A stretch of 64,000 nt of DNA. Origin: Magnetospirillum sp. Its GTDB lineage: Bacteria > Pseudomonadota > Alphaproteobacteria > CACIAM-22H2. The translations under genes were made by a program, and so were the position numbers. Of the stretch, positions 39,239-45,331 are shown piece after piece. The stretch covers positions 62,001 to 126,000 of the forward strand of contig JAPZUA010000006.1 in the NCBI GenBank assembly GCA_027532905.1. Direction: 5' to 3'. The notes beneath the pieces were generated by a model, which saw only the letters and a list, made by a program, of their open reading frames with translations, made no database searches and was not told the origin of the DNA. Position 1 is the first letter of the stretch, and each line of letters begins with the position of its first letter.

Positions 39239-40687
39239 ATGCGCGGGCGTTTTCTCAATATCTTGTGGATTGCGGGCTGCTTGGCAGCCTGGAGCCTTGG
39301 CATGCCCGCCGCCCATGCCCAAACGCCGCAGCGCGCCGCACCCAATGCGCCCCTAAACCCCGGAACAAGCGGGGAAATTATCGTCACAGGCGTGTCGTTG
39401 GGCGAAACGGCGGGCTCCACACGCCTTATCCTCACACTCAACCGGCGTATCGACCATCGGGTGTTCTTCCTGAACGAGCCGATGCGCGCCGTCGTTGATT
39501 TGCCAAGTGTGCAGTGGCGAATAACCGGCGGCGAGGTCGCCCCCTCGGGGCTCGTGTCGGGCTTGCGCTACGGGGCGTTCAATGCCGCCGCCGGGCGCCT
39601 CGTGCTCGATCTTGCCCAGCCCGCCAAATTGCGCGAGGCACGCTTCGACCTTGCCCCGAGCGGGCGCGGCCAGCGCCTGGTGCTCGATTTCGAGCGCTCG
39701 ACACCCGAAGCGTTCGCGCAGAACGTCCAACCCTGGTCGGCTTCCGGCGTTCTGCGCGCGATGCAGGCCAATGCGCCTTCACCGCCGCAACTGCAAACCC
39801 AAACGCCCGCCCAGCCGCAACCGCAACCGAGCCCGCCCACCCAGTTTGCGCAAACGGCAGCCCCGCGCGTCGCCGCCCCCGTGGCCCCGACGGCGCCCAC
39901 GACCGTCGCGGCCCCTGCGGCCGTCGCGAGCCCGCGCCCGCCGCAACTTCCCAATGCCCAGGGCGGCGCACCGGCGCGCCCGACCGGGCGGCCGATGATC
40001 GTGCTCGATCCCGGCCATGGTGGCGTCGATCCGGGGGCCATCGGCGTTTCGGGCACGCACGAAAAAGAGATCACGCTCGCGATGGCGCGCGAACTCCGCC
40101 GTCAGCTCGAACAGACCGGCCGCTATCGCGTGGCGATGACGCGCGACGACGACGTGTTCATCCGCCTGCGCGATCGCATCGCACTCGCGCGCCAGCAATC
40201 GGCCGATCTGTTCATCTCGATCCATGCGGACTCGATGGGCAGCGGCAACACCGCCACGCGCGGGGCGTCGATCTACACTTTGTCGGAAAACGCGTCGGAC
40301 AACGAAGCGGCCGCTTTGGCCGCGCGCGAAAACCGCGCCGACATCATCGCGGGCGTCGACCTCACGCGCGAGAACCGCGACGTGACCTCGATCCTGATCG
40401 ATCTTGCGCAGCGCGAGACGATGAACCGCTCGATCGTGTTCGCGCGCCATCTCGTGTCCGAAATGGGGCGCGAGGTGCTGCTGCTGCCGCAGAACCCGCA
40501 TCGCTTCGCAGGCTTCGCCGTGCTGAGGGCGCCCGACACGCCCTCGGTGCTGATCGAGATGGGCTATCTCTCGAATGCGCAGGACGAACTCCTGCTCAAT
40601 CGCCCGCACCATCGCACGAAGGTCGCCGCCGGCATCCTGCGCGCGATCGACGCCTATTTCGCGGCTAATCCTGCACGGCGCGGCTGA
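39239..40687 (+). CDS. amiC: N-acetylmuramoyl-L-alanine amidase with AMIN domain
   Basis: A 482-residue periplasmic cell-separation enzyme that cleaves stem peptides from murein. Signal peptide about 1-30 (AHAQ), AMIN targeting domain about 45-165 (VTGVSLGETAGSTRLILTL), Pro/Gln/Ala linker about 175-245, then Amidase_3. Zinc ligands fit IVLDPGHGGVDPGA (His), EKEITLAMAREL (Glu) and LFISIHADS (His); the catalytic Glu is in SVLIEMGYLSN. ATG 39239. In many Alphaproteobacteria this gene stands directly between rne and the PBP1A gene; here a 2-kb patch separates it from PBP1A. Confidence 0.94.
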   Translation: MRGRFLNILWIAGCLAAWSLGMPAAHAQTPQRAAPNAPLNPGTSGEIIVTGVSLGETAGSTRLILTLNRRIDHRVFFLNEPMRAVVDLPSVQWRITGGEVAPSGLVSGLRYGAFNAAAGRLVLDLAQPAKLREARFDLAPSGRGQRLVLDFERSTPEAFAQNVQPWSASGVLRAMQANAPSPPQLQTQTPAQPQPQPSPPTQFAQTAAPRVAAPVAPTAPTTVAAPAAVASPRPPQLPNAQGGAPARPTGRPMIVLDPGHGGVDPGAIGVSGTHEKEITLAMARELRRQLEQTGRYRVAMTRDDDVFIRLRDRIALARQQSADLFISIHADSMGSGNTATRGASIYTLSENASDNEAAALAARENRADIIAGVDLTRENRDVTSILIDLAQRETMNRSIVFARHLVSEMGREVLLLPQNPHRFAGFAVLRAPDTPSVLIEMGYLSNAQDELLLNRPHHRTKVAAGILRAIDAYFAANPARRG

Positions 40688-40694
40688 CGCGGCT

Positions 40695-41004
40695 TCAAGC
40701 GGCAAACAGCCCCTCCAAATCGTCGGCGATGCTCTGCGGCCCGAGATTGTAGAGGGCCGTCTTGAACGCGTCAGTCGTCTTCGGCCCGATCCAGCCGTCG
40801 CGCTTCAGGCCTTCGTAGCGCGCCACGCCGTTGTCGAGCCGGGTCGCAAAATCGCGGAACTGCCCGAGCGCAAATCTGCGCGCGAACCCGTCCGGCCCGG
40901 CTTTTTCGAGCGCACGCCCGAAGCCTGCGCGCGTCTGCGACATCGACGTTTTTGTCGCGCGTGGCGATCGGGACCGGATTCTTCTGCGCATAGAGCGTTG
41001 TGTT
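40695..41004 (-). pseudogene. Detached 3' part of the lysozyme-like gene (PG-binding-like domain)
   Basis: Directly after the TGA of the lysozyme-like gene the same frame continues with plausible protein (TTLYAQKNPVPIATRDKNVDVAD). After a one-base shift at roughly 40920-40960 the neighbouring frame gives GFGRALEKAGPDGFARRFALG and DGWIGPKTTDAFKTAL, ending in TGA at 40695. The GWIGPKT motif resembles a peptidoglycan-binding repeat. The simplest reading is a once longer gene broken by a stop and a frameshift. A separate ORF starting at ATG 40991 (98 residues) cannot be excluded. Confidence 0.5.
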
Positions 41005-41649
41005 TCAGTAGTCGCTGCGGAAGCTTTCCGGGGTCAGCTCTTGCGTGAGTTGCACCTTGGTCCCGTCGGCATCCTTGCCGCCTTTGCCAAGCGTCACTAC
41101 TTCGCCGCGCAGATGGGCTTTGAGCTCGTCGATCTTGCCGGTGCCGTATTGGTGGATATAGGCCGCCAGTTCGCGCTGGCCTTGGGGACTTGCGCAGAAT
41201 TTCTGCGCGTTCGGCCCCGACTGTCCGCACGCCTCTTCGACCTTGGCTACGACCGTGCGGACTTGGCCGCGCTCGGCATTTTCGAGCGCGCTTTCGCCTT
41301 CTTTTGTTTTCAGCACGCCCGCAGCGAACTTCTCGATCTTTGCGATTTGCACTTCGTTGTACCTTCCGTTTCGGTCCTTAAACGCTTCATGCGTTTGCTT
41401 CAGCATATCGGCGGTGATTTCCTCGGCGCCCGCGATTCCGGTGGCTTTGCCGATGGCAACGAGCCGGTCGGCAAGGTCCTTGTGCTTCGATAGGTCCATC
41501 TGAATGCGCCCGACGGACAGGCCGCTGTCGCCGTTGCGCACAATGGAGGTCTTTCCGGTTTCGCCGGTCGTACCTTCGGCATGCGCCAGAAATCTTGGCA
41601 GAGTGGTGCTGACTTCCGGATTCAGCCGGAACGGGTTATTCTTGGTCAT
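41005..41649 (-). CDS. Putative lysozyme-like protein, probably truncated
   Basis: A 214-residue protein. The N-terminal segment FLAHAEGTTGETGKTSIVRNGDSGLSVGRIQMDLSKH has the look of a lysozyme/transglycosylase fold: a Glu (E25) followed by 'SGLSxGxxQxDLS', as in phage and secreted muramidases. No signal peptide is present. ATG 41649 has a good AGGAAAGGG ribosome site. The product ends at a TGA after SFRSDY, beyond which similar-quality coding continues. It lies in the patch between amiC and mrcA, divergent from a secreted unknown. The family call is by pattern only. Confidence 0.6.
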   Translation of the reverse strand: MTKNNPFRLNPEVSTTLPRFLAHAEGTTGETGKTSIVRNGDSGLSVGRIQMDLSKHKDLADRLVAIGKATGIAGAEEITADMLKQTHEAFKDRNGRYNEVQIAKIEKFAAGVLKTKEGESALENAERGQVRTVVAKVEEACGQSGPNAQKFCASPQGQRELAAYIHQYGTGKIDELKAHLRGEVVTLGKGGKDADGTKVQLTQELTPESFRSDY

Positions 41650-41683
41650 AGTTCGTGCCCTTTCCTGTTTTCGGAGTTGCGAG

Positions 41684-42475
41684 ATGCAGCTGCGTTTCTT
41701 CGCGCAAGGCCTGTGCAGCCGCTGGACAGGCCTTGGTTTGCTCGTCCTTGCGGGCATGCTGATTTTCTCGCTAGGGATCGGCACGGCGATGGCGCAGAAT
41801 CATCGGATCAATCCGCGCGATTCGCGGGTTCCCGAGGATTACCGGCTGCGCAGCCAACTTCAGGAATCCCGACTGCGCGCAATCACAGAGACGAACTATT
41901 TCAACGACCGGCCGCTGCGCTGCACGATGGAGCTGAGTTTTTCGGTCGACTATCCGAATGTCGAGGCGCAGTCCAAGCGGATCGGCAATCCGGTCGCGGC
42001 CTTGAAGCGCGTCGAACTCGGGTTCGAACGGCACGGCGACCCGTTCCATTCGGACGACGTGCACGCTTTCGTGCGCGTGCGGATCGAACGGGTGGACAAC
42101 GGTGCGCCGTTGCGCATCGAGCGCATCGTAATCGACTATCGAAGGGACCCTGAAGTCGGGCCGTCTTCCACGGCGCGCTGGGTCGGCGAAGAGCTCGACG
42201 CAGAGGGCTACGGCAAGATATCGATGCCGGTCGCCAAGATGGAAATCGACGAAATTCTCAGCTTCAAATTTGAAATCATACGCGCGCCAGGCTCGATGGC
42301 GTTGACGTTGCCAGAGCTTGGGCAGAACCGTGCCTACGCGCCGTCTCATGCGGAATCGGTTGATACTGTTCCAGCTTTTGAAGCCTGCGCTTGTGCCATG
42401 CAGAACGAGCGGGTGAGCCACCGCGACGTTATGACCTGCGACGGCCCACGCTACGAGCCGCCCGAGAAGCGCTAG
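41684..42475 (+). CDS. Secreted protein of unknown function
   Basis: A 263-residue protein with a signal peptide or N-terminal anchor (GLGLLVLAGMLIFSLGIGTAMAQ, cut near residue 38). The mature region is polar and contains a beta-rich middle (RVRIERVDNGAPLRIERIVIDYRRD) and four Cys near the C-terminus (CACAM, MTCD, plus an early RCTME). ATG 41684 with GGAG eight bases upstream. It is divergent from the lysozyme-like gene by 34 bases, so the two may be coregulated; an inhibitor or partner role is conceivable but unproven. Confidence 0.68.
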   Translation: MQLRFFAQGLCSRWTGLGLLVLAGMLIFSLGIGTAMAQNHRINPRDSRVPEDYRLRSQLQESRLRAITETNYFNDRPLRCTMELSFSVDYPNVEAQSKRIGNPVAALKRVELGFERHGDPFHSDDVHAFVRVRIERVDNGAPLRIERIVIDYRRDPEVGPSSTARWVGEELDAEGYGKISMPVAKMEIDEILSFKFEIIRAPGSMALTLPELGQNRAYAPSHAESVDTVPAFEACACAMQNERVSHRDVMTCDGPRYEPPEKR

Positions 42476-42507
42476 CCGCGCAGCGCCGTCGGCTGTCAGG
42501 ACTGTCG

Positions 42508-42723
42508 TCATTGTCCGTTTTCCGTCGAGGGCCGCGCGCGCAGCCGTTCGGCCCGGCGCATGTCTCTGAATTGCTGGGCCGAAATCTGGTTCGCCGCGGG
42601 CGCCCTAAGTTTCGCTTTTTGTTCTCTCAAGCGGCGCTGTTCACGGGCGATCATTGCGCTCCACTGGCGTTCCGACGGGGCGAAAGCCGATTTCTGCTTG
42701 TATCCGCGTTTGATCATGCGCAT
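42508..42723 (-). CDS. Small basic protein of unknown function
   Basis: A 71-residue, Arg/Gln-rich protein (MRMIKRGYKQK at the start, then a helical QRRLREQKAKLRA stretch). Its ribosome site (AAGGAG eight bases before ATG 42723) is one of the best in the window, which supports real translation. It is convergent with the secreted unknown (32-base gap) and divergent from mrcA. No family recognised; it could bind nucleic acid by charge. Confidence 0.6.
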   Translation of the reverse strand: MRMIKRGYKQKSAFAPSERQWSAMIAREQRRLREQKAKLRAPAANQISAQQFRDMRRAERLRARPSTENGQ

Positions 42724-42904: not shown

Positions 42905-45331
42905 ATGCGTCGTGCACTCGTCACGCTTGTCGTTCTGCTGGTGTTGGCGCTGGTCGGCGGCAGTGGGGCCGTGCTGGCCGGGCTCTGGTATTTCGGGCGC
43001 GGCCTGCCCGACCACGGCGCGCTTGCGGCCTACCAGCCTTCCGTCACCACGCGCGTGCATGCGGCCGACGGGCGCATCCTTGCCGAGTTCGCGATCGAGC
43101 GGCGCATCTTCGTGCCGTACGACGCGATTCCGCGCCAGGTCGTGGGCGCGTTCCTTGCGGCCGAGGACAAAAATTTCTATTCGCATCCCGGCGTGAGCCT
43201 GCCCGACATTGCGCGCGCGGCCGTGCAGAACCTCGCCAATATGGGTGCCCGTCGGCCGGTGGGCGCGTCCACGATCACGCAGCAGGTCGCCAAGAACATG
43301 CTGCTGACCAACGAAGTGTCGATCGAGCGCAAGGTCAAGGAAGCGATCCTCGCTTTGCGCATCGAAGAAACGCTCTCCAAGCGCCGCATCCTCGAGCTTT
43401 ATTTGAACGAGATCTATCTCGGCTACGGCGCTTACGGTGTCGCGTCGGCGGCGATGAATTATTTCGACCGGTCGCTGGCCGAACTCACGCTCGCCGAAGC
43501 CGCGTTCCTGGCCGTGCTCCCCAAGGCGCCCAACAACTACAATCCCGCGCGCTTCATGGACCGTGCGGTCGAGCGGCGCGACTGGGTGTTGGGCCGCATG
43601 CTCGAAGACGGCCAGATTTCGCTGGCCGAGTACGAGGCCGCCCGCCGCACGCCGATCGTCACCCGCAATCGCGGACCCGAAGACACCGTGCGCGCCGACT
43701 ATTTCGCCGAGGAAGTGCGGCGCGAATTGTTCGCGCGCTTCGGCGAGCGCGAGCTGTTCCGCGGCGGCCTTAGCGTACGCACGACGATGGACCCGATGCT
43801 GCAGGCGGCCGCCGAAGCCGCCCTCATGCGCGGCATGCTCGCCTACGACCGCCGCCACGGCTATCGCGGAGCGATCGCGCGCATCGATACGAGCGGCGAT
43901 TGGCGCCGGCGCTTGCAGGGTGTGCAGCGCCCGCCCGGCATGCTGCCCGAATGGTCGCTGGCGCTCGTGCGCGGCCTCGGCAACGATGCCGCCGAATTGG
44001 GCCTGCTAGACGGCGGCCGCGCGACACTGGCCCTCGAAGATCTGCGCTGGGCGCGCAAGACCGAGCGCGAACAGCGCCTGGGCCCGCCCGTGCGCGCGCC
44101 CGCCGACGTGCTGGCGGTGGGCGACGTCGTGATCGTCGAGAAGCGCGCCGACGATGCCTCGCCCCTCAATCGCCATGCGCTGCGCCAGATCCCGAATGTG
44201 GGCGGGGCCATCGTGGCGATGGATCCCCATACGGGGCGCGTGCGCGCGATGGTGGGCGGCTGGAGCTTTGAGATGAGCCAGTTCAACCGCGCCACGCAAG
44301 CCCAGCGCCAGCCCGGCTCGTCCTTCAAGCCGTTCGTCTATCTGCCCGCCCTCGACAACGGGTTTTCGCCCGCGAGCCTCATCCTCGACGCGCCCATCGT
44401 CGTCGACCAGGGGCCGGGCCAGCCGCCGTGGCGCCCGGCGAACTATTCGCGCAATTTCTACGGCCCCTCGCCGATGCGCGTGGGCATGGAGCAGTCGCGC
44501 AACTTGATGACCATTCGCTTGGCCCAGGCGATCGGCATGGACAAGGTTGCGGCCGTCGCCGAAGGCCTGGGTGTCGTCGAGAAGCTGCAGCCGAGCCTCG
44601 CGATGGCGCTGGGGGCGGGCGAGACCACGCTGATGCGCCAAACCACGGCCTACGCGATGTTCGTGAATGGCGGCAAGCGCATCCAGGCAACGCTGATCGA
44701 CCGCGTGCAGGACCGCGAGGGCCGCACGATCTACCGCCACGATGTGCGTGCCTGCGCCGATTGCCGCAGCGATCTCTGGTTGCCGGGCTCCGAGCCGCCC
44801 GAACTGCCCGACGGCCGCGCCCAGGCGATCGACGCCGCGACCGCCTACCAGATGACCTCGATGTTGCAGGGTGTCGTGGAGCGCGGCACCGGGCGGCGTT
44901 TGCGCGAACTCAACCGCGCCATCGGCGGCAAGACCGGGACGACAAACGATTCGTTCGACACCTGGTTCATCGGCTTTTCGCCCGATTTGGCCGTGGGCGT
45001 TTGGGTCGGCTTCGACAATCCGCGCACGCTAGGGCCCAACGAGACCGGCTCGTCGGTCGCGGTCCCCATCTTCCGCGACGTGATGGCCGAAGCGCTGAAG
45101 GGTACGCCCAACGTGCCGTTCCGCATCCCGCCCGGCATTCGCCTCGTGCGCGTCAATCCGCAGACCGGTGCGCCTGCGCGCCCCGGCGAGCGCGACAGCA
45201 TCCTCGAAGCCTTCAAGCCCGGCACGGAATTGCGCGCCGACGGCCCCGTGCTCGACGGCGGCGGACGCTTCGCCGATCCGAGCCTCACGATCTCGATCCC
45301 CGGCAGCGAAGGCGGCGACGGGATCTACTGA
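42905..45331 (+). CDS. mrcA: Penicillin-binding protein 1A (bifunctional murein synthase)
   Basis: An 808-residue inner-membrane enzyme that polymerises and crosslinks peptidoglycan. One membrane helix (about 3-29), glycosyltransferase domain with AAEDKNFYSHPGVS and GASTITQQVAKNMLL, OB-like insert, then transpeptidase motifs PGSSFKPF (SxxK), the SRN-type motif in MEQSRNL, and GGKTGTTND (KTG). ATG 42905 places the helix at the N-terminus; in-frame ATG 42785 would add 40 polar residues and lacks a better ribosome site. A short AT-rich stretch at 42724-42784 probably holds the promoter. Confidence 0.96.
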   Translation: MRRALVTLVVLLVLALVGGSGAVLAGLWYFGRGLPDHGALAAYQPSVTTRVHAADGRILAEFAIERRIFVPYDAIPRQVVGAFLAAEDKNFYSHPGVSLPDIARAAVQNLANMGARRPVGASTITQQVAKNMLLTNEVSIERKVKEAILALRIEETLSKRRILELYLNEIYLGYGAYGVASAAMNYFDRSLAELTLAEAAFLAVLPKAPNNYNPARFMDRAVERRDWVLGRMLEDGQISLAEYEAARRTPIVTRNRGPEDTVRADYFAEEVRRELFARFGERELFRGGLSVRTTMDPMLQAAAEAALMRGMLAYDRRHGYRGAIARIDTSGDWRRRLQGVQRPPGMLPEWSLALVRGLGNDAAELGLLDGGRATLALEDLRWARKTEREQRLGPPVRAPADVLAVGDVVIVEKRADDASPLNRHALRQIPNVGGAIVAMDPHTGRVRAMVGGWSFEMSQFNRATQAQRQPGSSFKPFVYLPALDNGFSPASLILDAPIVVDQGPGQPPWRPANYSRNFYGPSPMRVGMEQSRNLMTIRLAQAIGMDKVAAVAEGLGVVEKLQPSLAMALGAGETTLMRQTTAYAMFVNGGKRIQATLIDRVQDREGRTIYRHDVRACADCRSDLWLPGSEPPELPDGRAQAIDAATAYQMTSMLQGVVERGTGRRLRELNRAIGGKTGTTNDSFDTWFIGFSPDLAVGVWVGFDNPRTLGPNETGSSVAVPIFRDVMAEALKGTPNVPFRIPPGIRLVRVNPQTGAPARPGERDSILEAFKPGTELRADGPVLDGGGRFADPSLTISIPGSEGGDGIY

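What the first reader, a model, noticed from the sequence alone, without database searches (positions are those of the whole stretch)
40695..42723. Two-kilobase patch between the amidase and PBP1A genes
rne, amiC and mrcA are commonly consecutive in Alphaproteobacteria. Here a lysozyme-like gene, a secreted unknown and a 71-residue basic protein are interposed. The lysozyme-like gene and the secreted protein start divergently 34 bases apart, like an effector with its partner or inhibitor. Insertion in a cell-wall locus of genes that may act on cell wall is notable.
Basis: partly seen in the sequence, partly recalled or inferred. Interest (0 to 1): 0.5.

Follow-up and report, generated by a model that had tools for sequence, protein, structure and literature searches.

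The report
Decaying lysozyme-toxin and guardian gene pair
A gene for a cell-wall-cutting enzyme and a gene for a secreted protein that probably blocks it were inserted between two cell-wall genes in one bacterial lineage, where the enzyme gene has since broken while its probable guardian stays intact; related pairs in other bacteria look like weapons kept with their antidotes.

Summary
Between amiC and the PBP1A gene lie a 214-aa reverse-strand ORF (LYT), a divergent 263-aa secreted protein (SEC) 34 bases away, and a 71-aa ORF. LYT and SEC are a lineage-specific insertion of about 1.8 kb: the two nearest relatives have neither there, only a homologue of the 71-aa gene, which is native to the site. 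LYT is broken. In relatives it is one 464-608 aa protein, a lysozyme-fold domain plus a PG_binding_3-type C-terminus. Here a stop falls inside the lysozyme domain and the C-terminus survives out of frame (about 40695-40937). A model of an intact relative matches lysozyme-superfamily structures, but no Pfam or NCBIfam family matches the domain. In the genus SEC occurs in 7 of 7 genomes with the long LYT and 0 of 4 without. Distant LYT homologues also sit beside unrelated secreted proteins: in type IV effectors (XVIPCD; neighbour a LprI-type lysozyme inhibitor) and in two phage-gene loci. Best reading: a lysozyme toxin with its periplasmic inhibitor, relocated and decaying here. Inhibition is untested and delivery unknown: TssC was found in 0 of 11 genus genomes, VirB4 in 1 of 11.

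The parts
39239..40687 (+). amiC, N-acetylmuramoyl-L-alanine amidase (left flank)
   Evidence: Pfam Amidase_3 4.9e-47, AMIN 1.2e-9
40690..42465 (.). Approximate extent of the lineage-specific insertion (LYT remnant plus SEC)
   Evidence: blastn against G003: homology stops at 40689 and resumes at 42465; against G002 it stops at 40687 and resumes at 42533; no LYT or SEC match by tblastn in the interval of G002 or G003
40695..40937 (-). C-terminal remnant of the long LYT gene, in another frame than LYT; inside the 98-aa ORF 40695-40991
   Evidence: tblastn: residues 338-464 of the 467-aa relative match 40937-40677 in frame -2, E 1e-19; weak PG_binding_3 score, 14.7 bits against a cut-off of 24.6
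40927..41004 (-). End of the lysozyme domain, still homologous but behind the stop codon
   Evidence: tblastn: residues 1-221 of the relative match 41649-40927 in frame -1, through the stop; the profile match over 40936-41649 reports 1 TGA inside
41005..41649 (-). LYT: 214-aa truncated lysozyme-fold protein without a signal-like start; keeps the Glu and the SGxSxGxxQxDL motif
   Evidence: (model of the relative)
41650..41683 (.). 34-bp spacer between the divergent starts of LYT and SEC
41684..42475 (+). SEC: 263-aa secreted protein, intact frame; probable periplasmic inhibitor (immunity) partner
   Evidence: homologues next to long LYT genes in relatives
42508..42723 (-). 71-aa basic protein gene, native to the site
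   Evidence: tblastn homologues at the same place in G003 (E 7e-13) and G002 (E 4e-7)
42905..45331 (+). mrcA, class A penicillin-binding protein PBP1A (right flank)
   Evidence: TIGR02074 1.4e-180

Best explanation
LYT and SEC belong to a toxin and inhibitor module. The toxin is a lysozyme-superfamily glycan hydrolase made without a signal peptide, in its full form carrying a C-terminal peptidoglycan-binding region; it would cut peptidoglycan when it reaches a periplasm. SEC is exported by its signal peptide and would block the enzyme there. In this genome a copy of the pair was inserted between amiC and the 71-aa gene upstream of mrcA; LYT then lost function by a premature stop, deletions and a frame change, while SEC kept an intact frame, as an orphan inhibitor or as a gene not yet decayed. 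Shown: insertion, the broken LYT gene, intact SEC frame, lysozyme fold of the family (model), genus-wide co-occurrence, secreted neighbours of distant homologues. Inferred: catalysis, inhibition of LYT by SEC, the role of the pair, the route of LYT to the periplasm.
For: Long LYT relatives are single ORFs whose C-terminus matches the 98-aa ORF; the window gene is split in two frames with a stop inside the domain. Model of an intact relative (467 aa, pLDDT 81.8): residues 6-226 align to GH46 chitosanases (4olt Z 9.9, rmsd 4.5, 191 aligned), a phage endolysin (7m5i 8.4), Brucella SagA (7dnp 7.8), T4 lysozyme (1epy 7.6) and the VgrG3 effector-immunity entry (4nso 7.5); residues 280-393 align to Sen1395 and TtsA (9.6, 8.0). 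SEC is found in 7 of 7 genus genomes with the long LYT and 0 of 4 without. The same domain is joined to XVIPCD (4.5e-28) and PG_binding_1 in G592; hhalign of the two domain families gives P 96.1, E 3.2e-9 with A4 and P 90.4, E 1.4e-6 with A1; in 4 of 5 fetched X-type loci the gene directly upstream is a LprI lysozyme-inhibitor protein. Distant homologues in G038, G072 (2 of 2 loci), G276 and G443 also lie beside secreted proteins of unrelated families. Precedent: a lysozyme-like T4SS effector without signal peptide whose periplasmic immunity protein protects the producer itself (PMC10933484, passages).
Against: No test of catalysis or binding. No Pfam, NCBIfam or PADLOC match for LYT or SEC. 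The genus lacks TssC (0 of 11), has VirB4 in 1 of 11 and a contractile sheath in 1 of 11, so no delivery machine is known. Short LYT genes occur without SEC in G000 (second locus), G002, G003, G004 and G010. SEC resembles no known lysozyme inhibitor in the fold search (best Z 7.1, below the noise level given). In G592 itself no upstream LprI gene was called. Foldseek alone gave no match at E 0.001 or better for either model.
Confidence: 0.6

Rival explanations
1. Endolysin-type release: the long LYT is a muramidase like the one of endolysin-based secretion (TtsA), and SEC is the cargo that is exported to the periplasm and released when LYT opens the wall.
For: The long LYT has no signal-like start and its C-terminal part matches the PG_binding_3 region of TtsA and Sen1395 (Z 8.0 and 9.6); Pfam PG_binding_3 is over its cut-off in 2 of 2 long LYTs scanned. 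SEC goes with the long LYT only.
Against: Distant LYTs have other wall-binding ends (PG_binding_1, LysM) and neighbours of unrelated families, one of them LprI, an inhibitor family. Divergent pairs with up to four SEC copies look more like antidote arrays. I did not look for a holin.
Confidence: 0.13
2. Phage heritage: LYT is a tail or lysis muramidase of prophages, and the secreted partners are superinfection-exclusion proteins against such enzymes; the genus kept pieces.
For: G276: LYT and two secreted genes lie inside a Mu-like tail cluster (DNA_circ_N 1.2e-29, GpP-like 2.3e-28, Gp45 5.8e-20). G443: LYT lies upstream of a Head-tail_con gene (4.6e-118).
Against: No phage genes were seen around LYT in the genus loci fetched. 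No relative in the phage records (one query) or in viral contigs (pattern hits were unrelated).
Confidence: 0.15
3. Housekeeping wall enzyme of the genus with a regulator, not a weapon.
For: A LYT homologue is present in 11 of 11 genus genomes at conserved chromosomal places next to rnhB or hpf/ptsN genes; the window copy sits between two wall genes.
Against: Copy number and architecture vary, pairs are gained and broken, and the domain is known in effectors with XVIPCD.
Confidence: 0.1

Closest known systems
X-Tfe/X-Tfi pairs of bacteria-killing type IV secretion, e.g. XAC2609 and XAC2610 (PMC10933484, PMC6536674, PMC6759196: passages seen)
   Same: Lysozyme-like enzyme without signal peptide, peptidoglycan-binding region, neighbouring gene for an exported inhibitor; G592 carries the LYT-type domain in such an effector.
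   Different: LYT of this genus has no XVIPCD in the Pfam scans, no VirB4 in G000, divergent gene order, and an unrelated partner family; XAC2609 is described as GH19.
VgrG3 lysozyme effector with TsiV3 (4nso)
   Same: Lysozyme-fold effector with a periplasmic antagonist; structural match Z 7.5.
   Different: No T6SS TssC in 11 of 11 genus genomes; no VgrG part.
TtsA / Sen1395 muramidases with PG_binding_3 (6v40, 6v3z)
   Same: C-terminal region, Z 8.0 and 9.6; no signal-like start.
   Different: N-terminal domain gave no GH108 match in Pfam; the typhoid-toxin role of TtsA is recalled, and nothing of the kind is seen here.
LysM effector with LprI-domain immunity protein in Salmonella Dublin (PMC8867033, passages)
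   Same: Wall hydrolase paired with an exported LprI-type protein, as in the X-type loci with the LYT domain.
   Different: Pair predicted there for a T6SS; the SEC partner of the window is not LprI.
GH46 chitosanases (4olt, 1chk)
   Same: Closest fold by Z (9.9, 8.2).
   Different: No GH46 match in Pfam; low identity (14-16%).

Membership tests
Lysozyme superfamily (fold) | Lysozyme-type fold | tested here: met
   Model of the relative L097, residues 6-226: the rows with Z 4.9 or more in that range are lysozyme-type enzymes or, as I recall, T4-lysozyme fusions; best 4olt Z 9.9, rmsd 4.5, 191 aligned. The window protein itself is truncated and was not modelled alone.
Lysozyme superfamily (fold) | Conserved acid residue and substrate-cleft motif | tested here: met
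   SGx[SA]xGxxQxDL in 21 of 21 domain sequences, with a Glu upstream; Glu nearly invariant in A4. Catalytic role inferred.
X-T4SS effector (X-Tfe) | C-terminal XVIPCD | tested here: not met
   Not found by Pfam in LYT, the 98-aa ORF or 4 genus relatives of LYT scanned; present in G592.
X-T4SS effector (X-Tfe) | T4SS in the genome | tested here: not met
   VirB4 family PF03135: 1 of 11 genus genomes, not G000.
T6SS effector | T6SS sheath genes in the genome | tested here: not met
   PF05943: 0 of 11 genus genomes.
Effector-immunity pair in general | Adjacent exported partner that goes with the enzyme | tested here: met
   7 of 7 against 0 of 4 genomes, Fisher p 0.003 without correction for shared descent; export judged by hydropathy only.
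Effector-immunity pair in general | Partner neutralises the enzyme | not testable with these tools
   No binding or activity assay; no co-folding tool.
GH108 / TtsA-type muramidase | GH108 catalytic domain | tested here: not met
   No such Pfam match in LYT or in 5 relatives of the LYT family scanned with it.
GH108 / TtsA-type muramidase | PG_binding_3 C-terminus | tested here: met
   Over cut-off in L033 (28.5 bits) and L035 (27.6) long proteins; below cut-off in the window remnant (14.7 of 24.6).
Known lysozyme inhibitors (LprI, PliI, MliC and others) | Sequence family | tested here: not met
   SEC has no Pfam match over a cut-off.
Known lysozyme inhibitors (LprI, PliI, MliC and others) | Fold | tested here: inconclusive
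   SEC model pLDDT 70.0; best chain 8z5n_A Z 7.1, rmsd 4.5, 138 aligned.

The most novel reading that the evidence does not exclude
One uncatalogued lysozyme-superfamily domain serves as a shared toxin part across T4SS effectors, prophage structural loci and standing chromosomal modules, and each setting has recruited a different exported antagonist (at least five families, SEC among them). In this genus, which has no T6SS and mostly no T4SS, the pair would act in the producing cell or after its lysis, and the window shows the enzyme dying while the antagonist persists.
Probability: 0.3. Interest if true: 0.65.

Novelty: new variant of a known kind. Interest (0 to 1): 0.45.

Why it matters
The LYT domain and SEC match no Pfam or NCBIfam family, so such pairs are at present annotated as hypothetical proteins. 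If the reading holds, the domain gives a handle for finding lysozyme effectors and new lysozyme inhibitors in Alphaproteobacteria and phages, and the genus offers a natural series (pair intact, pair multiplied, enzyme broken, pair absent) in which to ask how toxin and antidote genes move and decay, and what such an enzyme does where no secretion machine is found.

Tried and rejected
Pfam, NCBIfam, PHROGs, PADLOC and PDB sequence searches with LYT and SEC: nothing useful; PHROGs gave the 98-aa ORF a weak endolysin match (E 0.006). A motif pattern on viral contigs gave 5 unrelated stretches. tblastn of the G276 protein against phage and plasmid collections: no match; the X-type effector against plasmids matched only its PG_binding_1 part among the rows shown.

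T6SS effector: rejected for this genus. T4SS delivery: not supported. Contractile tail delivery: sheath in 1 of 11, G003. Target-site duplication or terminal repeats of the insertion: none evident; the longest direct repeat (24 nt, 88%) does not lie at the ends. A second weak LYT hit in G038 (L046, E 3e-4) was dropped because no such ORF could be read there. G443 is a weak member (E 2.3e-4). The named lysozyme inhibitors do not appear among the listed fold matches of SEC, which excludes nothing. The hydropathy test for signal peptides is crude: the enzyme LYT_G592 scored 2.14, within the range of the partners (1.21-2.98), and SEC_G005b scored only 1.21, its start probably miscalled. One cross-family match among 18 partner proteins was seen at E 0.006 (G443p1 with SEC of the window); I treat the families as unrelated by sequence. 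The tree groups the window LYT with the long LYTs of G006 and G008 at 81/79 only, with long branches. Gene calls in loci come from a home-made codon-usage script and miss AT-rich genes (it called none in L107 and L108).

Full report
What is there. The window is G000:C6:62001-126000, part of a 4.26-Mb assembly in 13 contigs. Between amiC (39239-40687, +) and mrcA (42905-45331, +) lie LYT (41005-41649, -), SEC (41684-42475, +) and a 71-aa ORF (42508-42723, -), as reported. The spacer between the divergent starts is 34 bases. LYT and SEC have low GC at third codon positions: 0.721 and 0.746, second and fourth lowest of 51 called window genes over 450 bases, median 0.815 (home-made gene calls).

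Insertion. I fetched the region after amiC from 16 relatives. mrcA follows in 11; in G001, G005, G009, G010 and G013 it does not. In G002 and G003, the nearest relatives by these proteins (AmiC 95%, MrcA 98% identical), the interval holds a homologue of the 71-aa gene and no LYT or SEC match; each of these genomes has one LYT homologue, elsewhere, and no SEC. In G003 and G004 the spacer is 529 and 197 bases, in G007 70. Homology of the window to G003 stops at 40689 and resumes at 42465. The simplest account is an insertion of LYT and SEC in the G000 lineage between amiC and the 71-aa gene. No repeats mark its ends.

The enzyme gene is broken. In G001, G005, G006, G008 and G009 the homologue is one long ORF, with the LYT part at the N-terminus and the part matching the 98-aa ORF at the C-terminus. 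Against the 467-aa copy of G008, residues 1-221 match window 41649-40927 in one frame, through the stop that ends the 214-aa ORF, and residues 338-464 match 40937-40677 in another frame; the middle is missing, and the C-terminal piece lacks some 40 further residues. The profile search likewise reports one TGA inside the domain. G007 has its long copy split between two frames too. SEC is open in both.

What the enzyme is. The model of the G008 protein (pLDDT 81.8) has an N-terminal domain whose structural matches are lysozyme-type enzymes: GH46 chitosanase 4olt Z 9.9 (rmsd 4.5, 191 aligned), endolysin 7m5i 8.4, SagA 7dnp 7.8, T4 lysozyme 1epy 7.6, effector entry 4nso 7.5, MltE 6.5; its residues 280-393 match Sen1395 and TtsA, Z 9.6 and 8.0. 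These Z values are middling, and Foldseek alone found nothing at E 0.001; the consistency of the N-terminal rows carries the argument. Pfam PG_binding_3 is over its cut-off in both long proteins scanned. The domain itself matches no family. A Glu and the motif SGx[SA]xGxxQxDL are kept in 21 of 21 domain sequences, the window's included.

The partner. SEC homologues occur in G001, G005, G006, G007 and G008 and, by its likeness to a G001 copy, in G009 (50% identity, E 9e-67). With G000 these are the 7 genomes with the long LYT; G002, G003, G004 and G010, which have short LYTs only, have none (Fisher p 0.003, uncorrected for descent). In G008 SEC and the long LYT lie on two contig ends, so adjacency there is inferred from G006. 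Numbers of SEC genes per cluster run from one to four. SEC has a hydrophobic start, an invariant pair of cysteines (C80 and C235 in A3), and a model (pLDDT 70.0, core about 87-92) with no clear match: best 8z5n_A Z 7.1, MotY 2zf8 Z 5.5.

Where else. The LYT profile A1 hit 5 of 386 genomes drawn over the class (G000, G002, G038, G072, G276), the SEC profile 1 of 386, G000. The wider profile A4 hit 3 of 398 over the phylum (G000, G592 E 4.5e-5, G443 E 2.3e-4). The G592 protein bears PG_binding_1 and XVIPCD (4.5e-28), the mark of T4SS effectors of Xanthomonadales; its domain occurs in 16 of 117 genomes of its family, and hhalign joins the two domain families (P 96.1, E 3.2e-9; with the narrower A1 P 90.4, E 1.4e-6), mostly over the motif region. 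In 4 of 5 such loci fetched, the upstream gene encodes a LprI-type lysozyme inhibitor (one of the four a partial call, E 8.8e-5); in G592 none was called. In G038, G443, G276 and G072 secreted proteins of other families stand next to LYT, two in a row in G276, G443 and one of the two G072 loci. G276 has it inside a Mu-like tail cluster, G443 upstream of a head-tail connector gene.

Mechanism. A lysozyme-fold enzyme without signal peptide beside an exported protein, with tandem copies of the exported one and exchange of its family, is the layout of effector and immunity genes. In Xanthomonas citri the lysozyme-like effector XAC2609 has no signal peptide yet harms its producer from the periplasm when its immunity protein is missing, without need of the T4SS (PMC10933484, passages). 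The same could make SEC needed in this genus, where TssC is absent (0 of 11), VirB4 present in 1 of 11 and a sheath in 1 of 11. I give this reading 0.6. The release model after TtsA, the phage model and a housekeeping model remain. In the window, the likely story is relocation of a long-LYT and SEC pair of the locus-A type (the tree puts the window LYT with G006 and G008, 81/79), then loss of the enzyme.

Novelty. The kind is known; the enzyme domain and the SEC family are not in the family libraries searched. Literature searches found no paper that joins LprI with X-Tfi, and I saw no description of this domain; these searches are few and by words. Interest is moderate because the window copy is decayed and the function is inferred.

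Noticed in passing
L034:3652-4356, L035:9784-10488, L039:1028-1732, L041:3728-4438: A LYT paralogue of 234-236 aa in G001, G005, G009 and G010 has lost the Glu and the SGxSxG motif but keeps an open frame in all four, next to an intact LYT: perhaps a dead enzyme kept as a regulator or binder.
   Followed up: partly
L109:1195-9034 (G276): A LYT gene and two tandem secreted genes lie inside a Mu-like phage tail cluster, between a tail-chaperone-like gene and the DNA_circ_N gene.
   Followed up: partly
L047:6791-7660 (G000:C4): The window's genome has a second, intact LYT of 289 aa without SEC beside rnhB, with counterparts at the same place in G002, G003 and G004.
   Followed up: partly
window:42508-42723: The 71-aa basic protein has homologues only in G002 and G003 among the 16 amiC loci compared; no function found.
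   Followed up: partly
L074:1-1510 and L073:4657-6500: The stretch after mrcA also varies: G002 has two Sel1-type genes (94% over a fragment and 50% to the window's), G003 has an extra gene and the 50% type.
   Followed up: no
L078, L079, L081, L083: In G005, G009, G010 and G001 amiC is followed, on the other strand, by what looks by eye like tyrS instead of mrcA.
   Followed up: no
L096: A record titled Asaia bogorensis (CAMDLT010000009.1), and others titled Azospirillum and Telmatospirillum, match genomes of this one genus; the labels of these assemblies are probably wrong.
   Followed up: no
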